Shown here in pieces: positions 40,863 through 50,981 of a DNA stretch of 64,000 nt (position 1 is its first letter; every line of letters begins with the position of its first letter). The notes under the pieces are model-generated. The model saw nothing but the letters and a program-made list of their open reading frames with translations. It was not told the DNA's origin and made no database searches. The stretch is from assembly GCA_015501595.1 (NCBI GenBank), contig JADNRX010000144.1, forward strand, positions 1 through 64,000, written 5' to 3'. Origin of the DNA: Hymenopellis radicata (taxonomy: Eukaryota; Basidiomycota; Agaricomycetes; Agaricales; Physalacriaceae). The translations under genes were made by a program, and so were the position numbers.

Positions 40863-43800
40863 TTCTTGCCCCGCGCCGTGTACCAGGCTACTAGTCGAGA
40901 GCGGCTCACATCTACAGCTTACATCGTGCAGAAGGCTATCATGAAGACCATGTTATTCAAGTCCCTGTACGCAATACTAAACTACTAGTACATGCCGAGC
41001 TCAAGGCATCGAATTTCCAGCAGGTACCCATTAAGTTGGGTCATGTGCTGGAAAAAGGTCCAATAACTGACTTCTCCCCCGAGTGTCTCATTGTCGACCG
41101 TCAACTTTGCTTTCATGACCGGTTCCTTGAGGTGGCCAGCCTTTAAGGCGGGGTACAGCCTTTCGTCAATGGTGAAATCCTCAGCCTGAGGCCGCCACAT
41201 CTCCGCCTCTCGCCTTTTTAAGAAACCTCTTGCAAGAACTTTCCAAAGGAATATGACCCACTCCTTGAACTCGTTGAAGCCCGGGGCGATGCACGATTCG
41301 ATGAAGTCGCTCCTGTTCCAGTAGAATCTACCCTTCGTCCGGTGAAGCTCCGCCCAAGACTGTCTCCCGTCAAACCATTCCTCGAAAGGCGGGTTCTCTC
41401 GTAGCTCCTGGTAATACTTGTCTCTGTGTACAATGTCGTGGCGACAGACGAGCATGAGAAGAACGTAAAACAGGGATTCCAGGTCATGCCGGTAGAGATG
41501 ACGGACATTGAATTTATGGGGTTTTTGGAGGAAGGGAGGGGTTCCAGTGAGCAGCGACGTACTCCCACTTTCGGACTCGAGGTCGGAAACCAAGGAGGCG
41601 AGGTCGAGGTCATTCGGAACGCCGTATACATTTCCTGCTTCATCCACGCGGAACATGATATTCGACGCGCTTAAATCGCGGTGGAGGATTTTTGGGACAT
41701 CATAAAGCCATTTGTGAGCTATGGAGTCGTTAGAATGGGGAGAGGAATTGGTTTGTAGAACTCACTTTGGAGGATATCCAGAAAAACTTGAGCAATCTTG
41801 TGTTGGCTGGTCAAACTCGTTATCGCATGCAGCTCTTCGGACACGCAGAGGCGAAGACAGCGGTCCTCATAGTTATATGTCTTCCCATCCGCGTAGTCTG
41901 CCCTGCTGAGGAAGTCGCGCATGCGGCCTTGAACAGACTTCTCGTCAATCATTACATCTTTGGAAGCAATCATGTTCGGGAGGTGGTTTAGGACCCAGGC
42001 ATGTTTCTCGTCTGCTTCGGCATAGTTTCTCGCGCGCTGGATAAGCTTCGTCTCTGGGACACGTGTCGCGGTCGGACAGCTGATTTTTACGACAAAACGC
42101 TTCTCGTCGGATGAACGTATGGATCCAACGACGCATGTGGAACGACCGATCAGACCTGGCTCGCGGAACACAATCTCCTTGAGAGTGTACGTCTCGTTCT
42201 CAATCTCCATTCGCCGGTCGTAGAACAATCTGCGCCAATCCCCGGAGCCATTCTCGACCACATGTTTCGAGGCAGATTCTGTGCATAAATTCCACGCATC
42301 TTGGACGTTACGAAGCCCGAGGTCCTCGGGACTGAGGCGGCGGAGACCGTACAACATCAAGATGAAGAGAGTCTGTCCTTCCTCGGTCGAGAGGTCGACG
42401 GCGCTGGAAACAGCGATTACACTCCGGTCAAAGTACTCGAACTGGACTTGGTCGCGGTCGAACAAGGTGAGTATGCTGTGGGAACGGAGGATGACGTCGG
42501 ATAGATGCTCCATCGCATATCGCGCGCATTGCGTCTGAAGATCGACTTGAGTCAACGGATCCTCAGTATTCTGCGCCTCGCCACCCGCACTGAAGGCCTC
42601 TTTGGACTGGGGGCCGATCTTTCGACCGGAAATGAGCCCTTCCGCATCGTAGTCTGTGCGCTTTCGCTTCCTAGACGCAGACCCGCCCATTCCGGCCGTT
42701 GTACCGTCGGAAGCAGCAAAACCCGCTCCACCTGAATTTGCCGGGCTTGCCTGTTTGGCCAGGCGCGGGTCCAAACCTGAAATCGACGAGTAAGACTAAA
42801 TCATCCGCAAACGCTGATGACTTCAACGCTACCTTCATGTAGAATGCGAGGATCGTTGTCGCCACGGCATAAGGTGCTGCCAGCGTTGGTGTCCCTCACC
42901 TCGACGACGTGGATGAGATTAGAAAAGCTCAGCCCCTTGTCGTGAATACAGAAGGAGTGAAACAGTGATTCGGGAGACAGGCGATTAATCACACCATCAA
43001 CGAGTTCGGTGGGATCGTTCACGGAAAAAGCCAGTTTCAATGTCTGTCGATCGTGGCCGTCCGGGAGAGGATCACGTTGATCCAGCAGCTTCAAGACAAC
43101 GGCGTAGAGGGATACAACGAAGGGATAAAGGCGGTGCTCGGTACCGGGACCTTTAACGACCTGGAGAAAGCTCTTCAAGGCCTTCTTGAAGTCGTCGTGG
43201 GCAGTGATAAACGTCAAGACGTTACGGCACGATGAATCTTCCTGCCAGTTAGCAGGCGTTCGAAACACCAGTTCCATGAACTGCTTCGCGTGCATGAAAA
43301 CACGGTTGTTATGCAAATCATGCTTGATGTATTCGTCGTAGTCTTTCCTACGGAACAGACCATTGCTGCTTGTGGTGTCAGAGCCATTGGGGCACCACAA
43401 AAGTGCCGTGGCAGGGGACGTGAGGGGACGTGCTACCGTGCACGATACCGTGGCCGTTACCGTGGCCGCAGCCGCGACGGTCCAAGAGTGCCGTGCATGG
43501 ACCCTGACTTTCGTAGATCACCGTGCTAAACGCCGTTACGTTCACCTCGTCACACTGTGACCAGTCAGCGTAACATCTAAGACCTAACCCTATGGTGAGC
43601 CCAACTTGTCCTTGTCCTTGTCCTTGGCCGTGCATCTGCATGTCCTTAGACGCAGTTGTTCGCATGCGCATACCATACAGGTGTTTCCAGTGTCCCCGAC
43701 TAATTCCTCGATGCGTACGAGAGGCTGGTTAACAACGGCGGTATCACCTTAAAGGTCCGTGCTTATTCTGTCTCTCGTATGCAACTTTACTTCCGACCGG

Positions 43801-43924
43801 CTTGTTGAAGGCGACAATGATGAGGTTGTTCTTCTGAATTCGGCTGATAACTGACAGTGTTTAGGACTGACGGTCATCCACAACTCAACTGCGCTAAACA
43901 GGATTGTATGTTCGAGTGTTTCAT

Positions 43925-44056
43925 ATCGCTGGCTGTTTGGCCAGCGATATCATGTAGACGACGAATACAAGAATCCACGAGGAGTCAGAGTATACACTCA
44001 AGTTCTCTCTGAAGATGGTTCCCTGGACTTTGGCATCCGGAAAGTGGCTGGCAGTA
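43925..44056 (+). other. Exon-like fragment inside the Pack-MULE-like element
   Basis: Reads YRWLFGQRYHVDDEYKNPRG then VRVYTQVLSEDGSLDFGIRK and VAG, followed by a GTAAGT donor. It looks like a real exon but is not recognised. Possibly a third captured fragment. Confidence 0.3.
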
Positions 44057-44220
44057 AGTCGTGTTTCGAAAGATAGTCATCATGTTTCTCATGAGTGCGT
44101 AGACGTCGGTGACGAACACATGTGCGCGGACCCTACAATGAAGGCTTTTGATGGTTTGAACGTGTCTGTTAGTCCGTCTGCCTGTTAACCTTCTTCCTTT
44201 TCTGAGAGCATTCTGTAGGT

Positions 44221-44427
44221 GCTCGTCTCCCTGGATACGACATGTCTTCATGGACCAGTGCTGGTGTAATCGCTTATCGGACTCGGACAACATTTGATCT
44301 CGACCTGTCTGTCGGCTCGGATGTTCCGCTAGCATTCGACTTTGCACTTGATAACGACGCTCCCCATCGAGTCCTGATCTTCGTAAATGAGTGGCGATTC
44401 GGACGGTACGTACTCGAACAGTTGTAA
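44221..44427 (+). pseudogene. GH35 beta-galactosidase C-terminal fragment
   Basis: Reads ARLPGYDMSSWTSAGVIAYR then TRTTFDLDLSVGSDVPLAFD, FALDNDAPHRVLIFVNEWRF and GRYV. This matches the C-terminal jelly-roll of fungal GH35 beta-galactosidases (GV.AY.T.FDLDLP.G.DVPLAF.F.....R..I.VNGWQFGRYV). Only this piece is present, with no catalytic domain and no C-terminal continuation, so it is a captured or relict fragment. Confidence 0.6.
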
Positions 44428-44579
44428 CTGGTTCTAGTCACACTCATTATCTAAACAGTTCTAATGTCGTCGCGACATCTGCCACGGCCGCGCTCGTTCG
44501 TACACAGTCAGTGTCATGATTTCCACGGTATCCCAAGATACGAATTATATGCAGTTCTTGTCTCGTAATTCAAGCGGTG

Positions 44580-44980
44580 CACCGATGCATGCATAGTGGT
44601 TATCAACAACGACGACTTTCTCGTGGTGGGACCAGAACTGGACTGAGTCCTTGGAACCGATGTGATCTGGATGGCGCAAACAGGTAATGTTGCGATGGAG
44701 ATCCTTCAGAACGTGTTTCGTGTTGCTGGAGCTCATAGTCATTGTCTGCGTGACTTCCTTGTACGCGACGACATAGATGTTGGCGCCCTGTTCGGCCTTG
44801 CGCTTTAAAAGGCTTTAAAAGGTGGTCCAGACGGTAGTCAACATGGTCCGCAGGCGGGCGCCTCAAGAAGACCTCGCGCGTGAGCCACCAAAATGAAGAT
44901 AGCCTCCTTGGCGCGGTCCAGCATTTCTGAGAGCGCCCACATGTAGTCGTGGCCGTCGACGTGCCTTGGCAAGATAAGAT
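44580..44980 (-). pseudogene. Phospholipase D1-type fragment with one HKD motif
   Basis: The minus strand reads HVDGHDYMWALSEMLDRAKE AIFILV, then WWLTREVFLRRPPADHVDYR LDHLLK, then ANIYVVAYKEVTQTMTMSSS and RHPDHIGSKD. It ends FWSHHEKVVVVDNHYACIG, the first HxKxxxxD motif of eukaryotic phospholipase D. Two or more frame changes are needed and the second HKD half is absent. The PX and PH parts are also absent. It is a decayed fragment within the element and cannot be functional. Confidence 0.65.
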
Positions 44981-46399
44981 CAACATCGATGGAAACCGTG
45001 AAAGCGTACCATTTGACAAAGTTGTTGGCCTTCTCTTCAGCAAGCGGTAAATCATCAAGGCATGAGACTCCCGGCCTTGATCGAGAGGCGCTGGCAAGGT
45101 TGATTGGAACAGATCACCTGCTGAATCCCGCTGAAGACTTGCGACAATATAGTAGTCCGCCCCAAATAAACACGACTCGAACTCGGCTCTAAGAGGGACT
45201 CGAGTCTCGGACTTGGAGGTGTACAAGGAATTTTCATGGGCGGGAGAACAATACTAGATAGTAGTGCTTCAGCATTCAAGGATATTCTCATAGGAATACC
45301 ACCAATCCCTGTTGAGTGATTATCCCAAGGGAGGAGGAGCACGAGTCTTGAACGAGAGTTTTAAACAGGCGGTGCTGGTGGAAGGAGAGCCCTCGTCTTG
45401 TGGTTAAGACGAAGTTGCAAATGGTAACGCCAATGTAACACGTTATCACGCACCTGTCACGCTACCGTGTCAGTGCCGTGAGAGCCAAGAGTGCCGTGCT
45501 ACTGGGCCCGAGCCATAGCCGCTACCGTGGTGACCGTGACTGTACCGTGGCCGCTACCGTGGTGACAACCATGGCTGCTACCGTGAGTACCGTGCTACCG
45601 TGGCGGCTGCAGGGTCTACCGTGCGCACGGCACTTTTGGCTAGGAGGACTTCGACGGTATTTGGTGATTTTTGGGCTTCATCAGGGTTCTTTTCATTGAA
45701 TACAAGTACATTGACTCAAGCTATTTACAGGACATGACTTGTCTGCCTAGAAGGTACGTACTCTAGGCGACTGGGAGGACAAGTCAATTTGGGCTGTGGC
45801 TGTGCTACCGTGCAGCCGTGAGCCGCTACCGTGCATGCACGGTCGCGGCCACGGTAAAATCGCGGGGCCCAGAGCCATTGTGGACAGCAGAGCTAAGAGC
45901 CTGAGGTGTATGTGGGACGAGGATTCGATGACATATTGGACTGCCGTCCGGACGGGGGGCCCTCGAGACTGTCATCGTCGAGCTCATAGTCTATTTTCGG
46001 GTCTGAGGACGATGGTGGAGCCATAGCAACAAGCAAGAGCGGTTCTCGAGGAAGATATAGAAGATGGAGAGCAATCTTGGAGACTCCTGGCTCTGATAGT
46101 TTGCCGAGGGATGGGCGTTCTACGTGAGGCGCACTGCTACACATGTATTTTCGATCAATTTTCCTTGTCACGATAGTCACAGCTACATCTCGTAACCCTG
46201 AAGGCTCTGGGCGACACGAACGAGAAATAATACAATGAGAGATGGCCGTAGGATTGCTTTCCTAATGCCATTAAATCGAGGTCCTGAACATAACGCGTCA
46301 TTACTGTCCTCACCGCCCGGAATCACGATATGATGGGTCGTTTTGAAGCTAATGTTACTAAATGTAGTTTGTTTGTCTACCTTCTGTTATTCTGTACGA

Positions 46400-47700: not shown

Positions 47701-48730
47701 TGAACTGTTATGGTAATGGGGTAAAATGGCGCGTCGCGTGGTGCGCGAAGGTTCTGATGCGCCGCAAGTGTTCTCGCGTGCTTCGCGAGAGCGTAGGGTT
47801 CGATCGCCGTACAGAACTGTCTGTAGTGAACTGGAAATGAAATGATGAGTGGCGCGAAGTCTGTGTTGCGCGCGAGAGAAAAGGAGAGAAGCAAAGAGTT
47901 AAGATAAAAGCAAGTAAAATTCGTATCCGTAGGTTGTCAACATGGTAGTAGTGGTAAGGTAAAACTATGCTAATCGACAGTATATATAGTGTCTGGCGAG
48001 GCTGTGCTGTGGAAAGCTGTGGAATGAACGAGTGCGTTCGCGGCAGTTATAAGCCCGGAGTGAGCACGGCAGTACGACTCACTGCAGTACACTGCATCGG
48101 CCCAGTGGATTCTACTGCGATGTACCACATTTCAGTGCAGAATTTCCCTCTTTTTAGGCAGGTCGGTTGCAGTACATCTCACTAAATTACACCGCACTAT
48201 TACGTATAACAGTGTCATATAGCGCTGTATTGTACTGCATCACGACTCCTCCGACGGCGATCTCCTACAGTATCTTACAGTGCAACGTACCACATAACAG
48301 TGCTACATCATGGTATATTACAGTGTACCGCAAGAGCTCCAGAGCGTACCCACTGCAGTACATCACAGTGAAATGGAGCGCATAACAGTGACACATTGTG
48401 GTGTATTACAGTGTGCTCGAAGGACTCCTAAGCGTACTCGCAGCAGTGCATTACAGTAAAGTGTAGCACCCGCTGTAGAAGGGTGCCGTGTCTGCCGAAC
48501 GCGGCCGCGATCGGACTTAACGGACTTAAGCCGATGAACACGAAAAGTAATCCTATTATATTTCAAGAACGGACATGTAACGGTATTCCGTTTCACATAT
48601 ATTACATTCATACATTCAGTCTGCACTCAAGAAAAATATGACCTTAGCTTAGCGTAGGTAGCCCGCGTTACGACTAGCCCGGACATTAGTACGTGCCCGG
48701 ATCACTTGAACCCGAGTCATACAACTTCAT

Positions 48731-50981
48731 TTAACCTAATATCTCTACCCAAAAGTCCTCATCCAATCCTCGATCCTTCGTATCAATCCGTCCTTGGACC
48801 ATATCTGCGTACATGAGGAAAAGAGAATGAAGGTAGAAGTCAAAGGTGATGTCGGTCATCTGTCGAAGCTGTGTATCAAAGCCGTCCAACCACGAATTCA
48901 GTTGCTCCGCAGTCTCCGTATTGAACGCGCGTGTAAGAAAGGTATTCCCCAATGAATCGGTAGCTGTACAAATGAGATCAGGTTGCGAACCATTCTTCGG
49001 AGTAGGGTTGCACCAAAGCCGGCATAGTGAGTCGGATGCCTTATGCCCGATATAATGCCAGACATCGACGATGAATTTGGTGGTCTGCAGCCAATGGCTG
49101 TGTCGATCCTGGGTAATGATATGCCGCAGAAGCTTACAAGCATTGTCGTATGCTAGAATGCTTGGCTTCAGATGATGATGATCGACCCAGACATCGTCAA
49201 TGATGCGCAGAACCTGTGAAGGACTCTCTGAGGAATAGCACTTGCCCCATCCAATAGGAAACCCGCAAGCCCACTGAACCGTTTGAATACAGTAGACATT
49301 ACACGCCCTAAAGGTATGCTCGACTTGTGTTCCTGGTAGATCATCAAGCGACGGAAGATCAATGTTGAAGGTAGCAGGAGGTGCGTGACCAGTACGAGTC
49401 GGATCAGCAGCTGGAGCATTGAACTCCTGCTGTCTACGAATGACTCGACGTACACCATCAAAGCCCAAGCGCTTGAAACGCTTCGAGTAGTGCTTGTACC
49501 AAGATTTATGTGTAGGAGTGCTGCACGTAAGGCTGCCGTCTTCGACCGGCTGATTACAGCCTACAAGACCGCAAACATCGGCGAGACCCTCATCCAAATG
49601 GGTAGAGCAAAAGCGCCCATTCTTGAAATTCTTGAGTGGCGACTTACAATCTCGAACGGCACAAATCTATAATTCCTAGAATGAGAACTACCGAACTTGA
49701 AGGAGGAATAGGCTCAACGCACACGATGACCGGTATTCTTGCCATCCATAACTGCAAGACGGACATATCCTCGAGGCTCATCTGGAGCAGGTGCAGGGGT
49801 CGCCTGGTTTAGTTGACGCTCATATGCAGAAATAAGATCCTCGTCGTCCTACATATAAGTATGAGAGATGAGAAGCTCTAGTTAGGTCAACAACATACCT
49901 GGGTAGTATCATCATCACTGACAGATTCATCATCTGAATCATGGTCGTTCGAGCTCTGACCAACGAGTCCATCGACTGTCGTTCCGAGAATTGCCCCCTC
50001 AGCGATAAGGTCCTCTTTATAGCGCTTCTTATGGGTACAATCTTTGCACCCATGATCCATGGCACTGGGAAAGAGGCCGCCATTGATGCCGAGCACGTCC
50101 CGAACTGATTTCATAAGAACATCCGTTGTGGCATTCGATGGGAACTGCACAACATCCGGCTTAGCATGTGCAACCAGTAGACGGCGAGACAGATGCTCCA
50201 CGAACAGTCTCTTCGACTGACGTGTAGTGATCTTTCGCGACTCGCCCCGTTGACGAAGAGAGTCGTTCATCCATTCTGCAAAGTTGGCCCATCCGCATTT
50301 GAATCGAGCGACAGCCTTTTCCTGCTCGATAGCAAGATAGCGGTGAACCCATATACCGCGCTTGGAGATGCGCAGATATCTGGCATCATAATCCAGTCGC
50401 TGGATACGATGGTGCCGAATGTCACCTGGGGAGACGATGCAGTCTGGATAATAATCGGATTTGCAGACTCCACACCGGCCAACAAGAAGGTTTCCAGCTC
50501 GCCAGCGTCGATCCTTGTCAAGAATCCAAACAGTATGGACTTTAGTTCTCTGGCGTAGGCTTGTTAAACGAGTACCGGGAGGACAGATGATGCATGCACG
50601 ATGATGTGTTACGAGGATAATGGGTGGAGAGGGAATAAAGGTTGACGAAACCTCGAAGCCGTCACTGTCAATGCCAAGGAGATCATACAACGCATCAGCA
50701 TCGCGAGCCATGGCAGCTGCAAATTCGAAGCGCTCTGTATCATCCCGCCAAAGCTCCATGTCATGGGGATCAAGAGCGCCCCCTAGAACTTGGATGAACG
50801 CGGTCAGCCAAGCAGTATGGGTGCGCGCGTGAGAACCATCAGTTGGTTGATTTTTATGAAGCTGGTAGATGGGATAGAGGCTGATGATTGTACAAAGGGA
50901 AAGGATAACATTCTCCAGTGAAAGACCGGCTGGAAAGAATAAAGCCAAAACGTTTGATAGATCTTGGGTTGTTGAAACCAT
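48731..50981 (-). CDS. KDZ transposon protein with CxC5 and CxC6 cysteine clusters
   Basis: Minus strand, start at 50981 (MVSTTQDLSNVLALFFPAGL). Introns near 49848-49898 and 49671-49720. The N-terminal part has CIICPP..LTSLRQR and GRCGVCKSDYYPDC (CxC5-like cluster). A CxC6-like cluster follows the last intron: ICAVRDCKSPLKNFKNGRFC, then STHLDEGLADVCGLVGCNQP. The C-terminus reads SILAYDNACKLLRHII, FIVDVWHYIGHKASDSLCRL WCNP and TETAEQLNSWLDGF, the RNase-H-like part typical of KDZ transposases (D in YDNAC, VD.WH, E in TAEQLNSW). It probably catalyses or supports transposition of the surrounding element. Exons join in frame and no stops intervene. Confidence 0.8.

What the first reader, a model, noticed from the sequence alone, without database searches (positions are those of the whole stretch)
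43380..45880. Pack-MULE-like element carrying GH35 and phospholipase D fragments, inserted in a FunK1 kinase exon
Seen: a perfect 10-bp direct repeat (AGAGCCATTG) flanks 2.48 kb; the ends are weak GGGC-type inverted repeats; the subterminal arms are full of CTACCGTG; inside lie a GH35 C-terminal jelly-roll piece (+) and a phospholipase D piece with one HHEKVVVVD motif (-). Removing the element and one repeat brings the 5' coding sequence (MAPPSSSDPKIDYELDD..) next to the FunK1 body (..NGSDTTSSNGLFRRKDY). Known: MULEs make 9-11 bp duplications and Pack-MULEs capture gene pieces, mostly described in plants. Inference: this is a fungal Pack-MULE-like capture of two unrelated enzyme genes.
Basis: partly seen in the sequence, partly recalled or inferred. 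Interest (0 to 1): 0.88.

Follow-up and report, generated by a model that had tools for sequence, protein, structure and literature searches.

The report
Fungal transposon carrying stolen gene pieces
A 2.5-kb jumping DNA element in a mushroom-type fungus has swallowed pieces of two unrelated enzyme genes and landed inside a kinase gene; sister copies with the same ends elsewhere in the genome carry other captured gene pieces, a process described mostly in plants.

Summary
Window 43390-45870 is a complete 2,481-bp element with a perfect 10-bp target duplication, one of a family: nine other near full-length copies share its ends (GGGCACCACAAAAGTGCCGTGGC...GGTAAAATCGCGGGGCC). Nine of the ten copies have an 8-10 bp duplication, six of them 9 bp; 90 cross-copy pairings give at most 4. 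Inside this copy lie a GH35 beta-galactosidase piece (80% to a resident gene, two introns kept) and a phospholipase D piece (91% to a resident gene). One sister copy carries another GH35 piece; four full-length copies and one truncated copy carry a ferric reductase piece with upstream sequence. Kinase-gene paralogs show the empty site. So it is a non-autonomous, gene-capturing DNA transposon ('Pack' type). The MULE label is only likely: duplication length fits, but no transposase with these ends was found, and the end types resolved for 9 of 14 resident MULE places differ. One detail is corrected: the flanks are both FunK1 coding sequence, but not in one frame, because of an 8-bp gap relative to paralogs about 30 bp away. 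Gene capture by fungal hAT, Tc1/mariner and Helitron elements is already known.

The parts
43380..43389 (.). left target-site duplication AGAGCCATTG
   Evidence: exact 10-bp match to 45871-45880
43390..45870 (+). whole element, 2,481 bp
   Evidence: ends shared with 9 other near full-length copies in the genome
43390..43559 (+). shared left end with TACCGTG direct repeats
   Evidence: 76-96% identical over about 170 bp to 9 full-length copies and 3 further ends
43390..43414 (+). left terminal inverted repeat, imperfect
   Evidence: 17 of 25 matches to the reverse complement of 45846-45870
43777..44473 (+). captured GH35 beta-galactosidase piece (second all-beta domain region), decayed, introns kept
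   Evidence: 80% over 752 alignment columns to C611/L015; Pfam PF13364
44054..44102 (+). first intron kept in the GH35 piece
   Evidence: GT..AG stretch aligned to the donor intron; the spliced donor peptide is open and matches PDB 1tg7 across the joins
44162..44218 (+). second intron kept in the GH35 piece
   Evidence: as above
44580..45043 (-). captured phospholipase D piece with one HKD motif, decayed
   Evidence: 91% over 469 alignment columns to C1284/L016; Pfam PF00614
45368..45412 (.). 45-bp repeat also present at nine other listed places
   Evidence: 92-95% matches; nature unknown
45423..45870 (+). shared right end with TACCGTG direct repeats
   Evidence: 91-97% identical over about 450 bp to 9 full-length copies and 1 truncated copy
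45846..45870 (-). right terminal inverted repeat, imperfect
45871..45880 (.). right target-site duplication AGAGCCATTG
41400..43379 (-). FunK1-type kinase body, interrupted host gene (low end approximate)
   Evidence: Pfam PF17667, two frames, E 2e-9 and 8e-17
45881..46024 (-). 5' coding part of the interrupted FunK1-type gene, with an 8-bp gap relative to paralogs
   Evidence: alignment with paralogs L070, L071, L072

Best explanation
This is a non-autonomous cut-and-paste DNA transposon of the 'Pack' kind. A transposase supplied from elsewhere recognises the about 30-bp GGGC ends (probably with the TACCGTG arrays) and inserts the element at a staggered cut that leaves 8-10, mostly 9, bp duplicated. 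Between the ends it has replaced its interior with chromosomal DNA: a genomic, intron-containing piece of a GH35 beta-galactosidase gene and a piece of a phospholipase D gene. Capture probably happens when the gap left by excision, or a break in the element, is repaired by copying from other loci. Shown: ends, duplications, shared family, donor-like genes, retained introns, empty paralog site, several different captured pieces in sister copies, amplification of one captured piece. Inferred: the repair mechanism, a trans-acting transposase, and its identity as a Mutator-like transposase (I put that at about 0.6).
For: Ten near full-length copies including this one; own-flank duplications of 8-10 bp in 9 of 10, control of 90 cross pairs at most 4 bp. 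Left-end 21-mer: 14 exact and 4 near matches (1 with one, 3 with three mismatches), reversed control 0; right-end 21-mer: 10 exact and 3 near, control 0. The GH35 and the PLD stretch each match one other listed place, on different contigs (which scored 40 of 59 candidates). Two GH35 introns kept. Copy L010 carries a GH35 domain-3 piece (Pfam E 4e-9). Copies L011, L012, L013 and L018 carry a ferric reductase piece including sequence upstream of its probable start codon, and truncated L022 the first 300 bp or so of it. Empty site in FunK1 paralogs. Right ends do not follow interiors: L018 has the ferric reductase interior but its right end groups with L010. L011-L013 are 97-99% identical at different sites, so amplification was fairly recent.
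Against: No transposase with these ends was found. Two orphan left ends (C527, C627) have no right end within about 5.8 kb and no transposase domain in what was scanned there (of the last 2 kb on C527 only the three - frames were scanned). Copy L009 has no target duplication. About 660 bp of this element's interior has no match in the genome search (43560-43776, 44474-44579, most of 45044-45422). The two-gene copy is single in the listed matches, so its movement after capture is inferred from its duplication and from sister copies. The PLD piece is flanked by an 8-bp direct word, CAAGCGGT, which 62 of about 2,000 random position pairs match in length (the GH35 piece shows none), so it may have come in as a separate insertion or repair event. 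The GH35 piece is only 80% identical to the nearest listed gene, so the true donor may be a lost or unassembled paralog; the catalytic part of that gene was not seen in the fetched stretch, so its completeness is not shown.
Confidence: 0.85

Rival explanations
1. The same gene-capturing transposon, but mobilised by a non-Mutator transposase (for example a KDZ-group, hAT or undescribed enzyme).
For: KDZ domains are very common in this genome (at least 166 matches, 150 of 180 candidates scored) and hAT dimerisation domains number 70; the end types resolved for resident MULEs differ from GGGC.
Against: hAT (apart from 5-7 bp variants), Zisupton and Dileera are reported to make 8-bp and Kyakuja 7-bp duplications with CA..TG ends (PMC12730594, passages and section 11 read); here 7 of 9 duplications are 9 or 10 bp. 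No IS1595/Merlin-type domain was found.
Confidence: 0.33
2. An ordinary decayed transposon into which GH35 and PLD pieces were later inserted or copied one by one without any link to transposition.
For: The two pieces differ in divergence (80% and 91%), so they may have arrived at different times; the PLD piece is flanked by an 8-bp direct word, reached by 62 of about 2,000 random pairs; one 250-bp and one 350-bp repeat lie inside sister copies.
Against: The GH35 piece has no flanking duplication (longest shared word 4 bp); several sister copies hold different host-gene pieces inside the same ends, and one such interior was then amplified at separate sites.
Confidence: 0.12
3. A Helitron-type rolling-circle capture.
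For: Helitrons capture genes in the basidiomycete Pleurotus (Castanera et al. 2014, seen only as a reference-list entry in PMC8290104).
Against: Target duplications of 8-10 bp in 9 of 10 copies and inverted ends; Helitrons make no such duplication (recalled).
Confidence: 0.01

Closest known systems
Pack-MULEs of plants
   Same: Non-autonomous, host-gene fragments between transposon ends, several donors, 8-11 bp target duplications for MULEs (PMC6446971, passages). Introns kept in captured pieces (recalled for plants).
   Different: Fungal host; ends are a short imperfect inverted repeat with long direct-repeat arms, not long TIRs; no linked Mutator transposase found.
Mutyl (group 35 with Hop in PMC6446971, passages)
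   Same: A fungal MULE listed with 9-10 bp duplications and a 22-bp TIR, close in both measures.
   Different: Autonomous, with a second ORF; no sequence comparison was made; no gene capture for it in the passages read.
Transduplicating hAT and Tc1/mariner elements of Pyrenophora and Pseudocercospora (PMC3538342, PMC6710886; passages read)
   Same: Fungal DNA transposons that took in host-gene sequence between their ends and amplified it.
   Different: Those elements carry one recognised captured gene or ORF (histone H3-like, or an osmosensory-transporter domain ORF), and the long hAT form still encodes a transposase; the Pseudocercospora H3 copy lacks introns and is read as coming from a transcript or retrocopy. 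Here genomic DNA with introns and pieces of two genes were taken. The Cercospora hAT has 8-bp duplications.
Helitron gene capture in Pleurotus (Castanera 2014; reference entry only seen)
   Same: Gene capture by a transposon in an agaricomycete.
   Different: Rolling-circle element without target duplication (recalled).

Membership tests
Pack-type (gene-capturing non-autonomous) DNA transposon | defined ends and target duplication around host-gene fragments | tested here: met
Pack-type (gene-capturing non-autonomous) DNA transposon | fragments derive from genes resident elsewhere in the genome | tested here: met
   L015 GH35, L016 PLD, L046 ferric reductase, L047 GH35; 80-91% identical, so nearest relatives rather than proven donors
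Pack-type (gene-capturing non-autonomous) DNA transposon | no transposase inside | tested here: met
   no transposase domain in six frames of this element and of L020, nor in three frames each of L010 and L014; L009, L011-L013, L018 and L019 were not scanned
Pack-MULE / MULE | target duplication of 8-11 bp | tested here: met
   8 bp in 2, 9 bp in 6, 10 bp in 1, none in 1 of 10 copies; range from PMC6446971
Pack-MULE / MULE | terminal inverted repeats, often long | tested here: inconclusive
   only an imperfect repeat, 17 of 25; non-TIR MULEs exist (PMC6446971)
Pack-MULE / MULE | ends shared with an element encoding a Mutator transposase | tested here: inconclusive
   14 PF10551 places; 9 of 14 of three other end types, 5 unresolved; none of the 14 lies on a contig with an end-pattern match of this family
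hAT | 8-bp target duplication (5-7 bp in hAT5-hAT7) | tested here: not met
   7 of 9 are 9 or 10 bp; lengths from PMC12730594
KDZ (Zisupton, Dileera, Kyakuja) | 8-bp (Zisupton, Dileera) or 7-bp with CA..TG ends (Kyakuja) | tested here: not met
   7 of 9 are 9 or 10 bp, ends GGGC..GCCC; lengths from PMC12730594
Merlin / IS1595 | IS1595-type transposase in the genome | tested here: not met
   0 matches to PF12762
Helitron | no target duplication | tested here: not met

The most novel reading that the evidence does not exclude
An agaricomycete-type genome harbours a transposon family, moved by an unassigned or Mutator-type transposase, that repeatedly samples genomic DNA (GH35 pieces in two copies, PLD, ferric reductase with its upstream region) and exchanges ends among copies: a fungal counterpart of plant Pack-MULEs with short asymmetric ends.
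Probability: 0.6. Interest if true: 0.6.

Novelty: new variant of a known kind. Interest (0 to 1): 0.52.

Why it matters
Repeated gene-fragment capture with introns by a cut-and-paste element is documented mainly for plants. My searches of the held library (listings partial: for example 20 of 51) and the passages I read gave fungal cases for hAT, Tc1/mariner and Helitron elements but no fungal Pack-MULE family. A family with fairly recent copies, identifiable donor-like genes and an empty paralog site in a 75-Mb fungal genome would let one test how capture works and whether captured promoters or exons are expressed.

Tried and rejected
Looked for the autonomous partner: MULE, KDZ, hAT and IS1595 domains in the own genome, end patterns, and unpaired or partial ends L017, L021, L022, L023, L026, L027, L043, L044, L045. 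L017, L021, L022 and L023 are truncated or contig-cut copies of known interior types; L043 and L044 keep 68 and 30 bp of the left end and no right end. A one-mismatch candidate duplication in L044 at 590 was rejected because no right end precedes it. C900 (L067) gave no convincing ends.

Looked for more of the donors around the unexplained interior stretches: no convincing extension. Interiors of the L020 and L014 types gave no host gene.

The hAT list holds domains on C508 about 8 kb from the truncated copy L017; not followed, because that copy has the ordinary L014-type interior and is cut off.

Full report
Observation. The window lies on contig C457 of a 75.5-Mb, 1,405-contig genome. The element spans 43390-45870 and is flanked by AGAGCCATTG on both sides. 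Its first 25 bases and the reverse complement of its last 25 match at 17 positions; 0 of 20,000 shuffles reach that. TACCGTG occurs 25 times in the window (both strands) against a mean of 5.4 in shuffles; 15 lie in the element, 13 of them in its two arms and in one orientation.

Family. Searching the own genome with the element (40 of 59 candidates scored) found the left 170 bp and the right 450 bp at many other places, the GH35 and PLD stretches at one place each. After fetching the places, ten near full-length copies could be outlined, this one included: W, L009, L010, L011, L012, L013, L014, L018, L019, L020, 2.30-2.51 kb long. Nine of ten have a perfect duplication: 10 bp here, 9 bp in six, 8 bp in two; L009 has none, and its last base is G, not C. 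Pairing the left flank of each copy with the right flank of each other copy (90 pairs) never gives more than 4 bp. The left-end 21-mer occurs 14 times exactly plus 4 times with 1-3 mismatches, the right-end 21-mer 10 times exactly plus 3 times with 1-2, and the reversed controls 0 times. Further truncated or contig-cut copies are L017, L021, L022, L023.

Captured pieces. In this copy 43777-44473 aligns at 80% with C611 (L015), a GH35 gene with BetaGal_dom2, dom3 and ABD2 domains in several frames, and 44580-45043 aligns at 91% with C1284 (L016), where the other strand shows PLDc and PLDc_2 domains. Two introns of the GH35 gene are present in the captured piece; removing them from the resident gene gives an open peptide that matches the fungal beta-galactosidase 1tg7 with E 7e-27 across the joins. 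So capture was from genomic DNA. The GH35 piece has frame changes and a 30-bp gap, the PLD piece 10-bp and 5-bp length differences, so neither is likely to code. Copy L010 carries a GH35 domain-3 piece, 86% to C852 and 82% to C611. L011, L012, L013 and L018 carry a piece of a ferric reductase gene, 82-87% to C611:54106-55009, including sequence upstream of its probable start codon, and truncated L022 carries the beginning of it. Interiors of the L014 type (three frames scanned) and L020 type (six frames) gave no host gene.

Junctions. The GH35 piece has no direct repeat over 4 bp at its two junctions. The PLD piece has CAAGCGGT next to both; 62 of about 2,000 random position pairs in the element share a word that long. 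This is weak, and it could mark a separate insertion or repair of a staggered break.

Ends and interiors recombine. In a tree of the 445-bp right ends, L018 (ferric reductase interior) groups with L010 (98/97 support), and the L009 and L014 ends fall with W and L011-L013 (92/99, drawn open) although the interiors differ. This fits repair-based exchange; the tree is small and its bootstrap had not settled.

Insertion site. The element interrupts a FunK1-type kinase gene (PF17667). One search gave 8 matches to the joined flanks, two of them the window itself: C463 at 89% over all 390 bases, C477 (90567) and C513 at 73% over all 390, and C1228, C869 and C477 (102194) over 270-357 bases that also span the junction. 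Three of these six places were fetched (L070, L071, L072): none has the insert. The target reads AGAGGCATTG in L070 (9 of 10 to the duplication) and AGAGGCATCG in L071; in L072 it has diverged, and L071 and L072 have 9 more bases close by. I cannot say which lesion came first.

Which transposase? The duplication lengths fit Mutator-like elements (8-11 bp in PMC6446971, passages read) better than hAT or Zisupton/Dileera (8 bp) or Kyakuja (7 bp, CA..TG) as given in PMC12730594 (passages and section 11 read). The genome has 14 MULE-domain places, 13 over the cut-off. Three end types were resolved: AGTTGCATTT.. with 9-10 bp (C718, C842; C1287 by similarity and one end), TAGAGACCTC.. with 8 bp (C1218, C511; C966 and C951 by similarity alone) and ATTATGGGCA.. 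with 9 bp (C458; C375 shows the same end repeats, duplication not checked). None is the GGGC type; C715, C974, C900, C113 and C482 stay unresolved. The family is therefore Pack-like by structure and MULE-like by duplication length, not proved a MULE.

Prior work. Manning et al. 2013 (PMC3538342, passages) call their hAT case the first indication of fungal transduplication and add a Tc1/mariner case; PMC6710886 (passages) describes histone H3 capture by a hAT element, apparently from a transcript or retrocopy; PMC8290104 (passages) mentions widespread putative non-autonomous MULEs in the agaricomycete Marasmius oreades; PMC8647823 (passages) reports genes over-represented next to MULEs in Rhizophagus. 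In PMC10853768 and PMC4522978 the Pack terms stand only in the reference lists. Searches for Pack-MULE with fungi, transduplication with Basidiomycota, Pack-TYPE with fungal, and related terms listed no fungal Pack-MULE family that I recognised; the listings are partial (20 of 51, 10 of 112, 10 of 10, none, 2 of 2, 12 of 48, 2 of 2), and I opened eight papers in all.

Noticed in passing
window 49490-50627: CxC5 and CxC6 cysteine-cluster domains associated with KDZ transposases, - strand.
   Followed up: partly
L010 (C737:16647-19007): A stretch of about 350 bp inside this sister copy recurs at more than 20 listed places in the genome at 69-91% identity, probably a small transposon nested in it.
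   Followed up: no
L020 (C498), element interior: A 250-bp insert is present at 36 listed places at 96-100% identity (40 of 433 candidates scored), probably a recently active miniature element.
   Followed up: no
L024 (C466) and L025 (C972): A duplication, 93-97% identical over about 4.7 kb, contains a decayed copy of the ferric-reductase-carrying element.
   Followed up: partly
L044 (C627), 2059-2193, - strand: Part of an SRA (methylcytosine-binding) domain lies 1.8 kb from an orphan left end whose outer 30 bp are identical to the family.
   Followed up: partly
L043 (C527), 721-1528, - strand: A protein kinase piece lies 0.5 kb from another orphan left end.
   Followed up: partly
L015 (C611) and L047 (C852): Two GH35 genes about 94% identical over 1.4 kb; the similarity stops inside the gene, so the C852 copy looks truncated or rearranged.
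   Followed up: no
window, about 44571-44578 and 45041-45048: The 8-bp word CAAGCGGT stands next to both junctions of the captured PLD piece.
   Followed up: partly
window 48050-48480: Degenerate repeats rich in CAGTACA/CACAGTG-like words, seen by eye.
   Followed up: no
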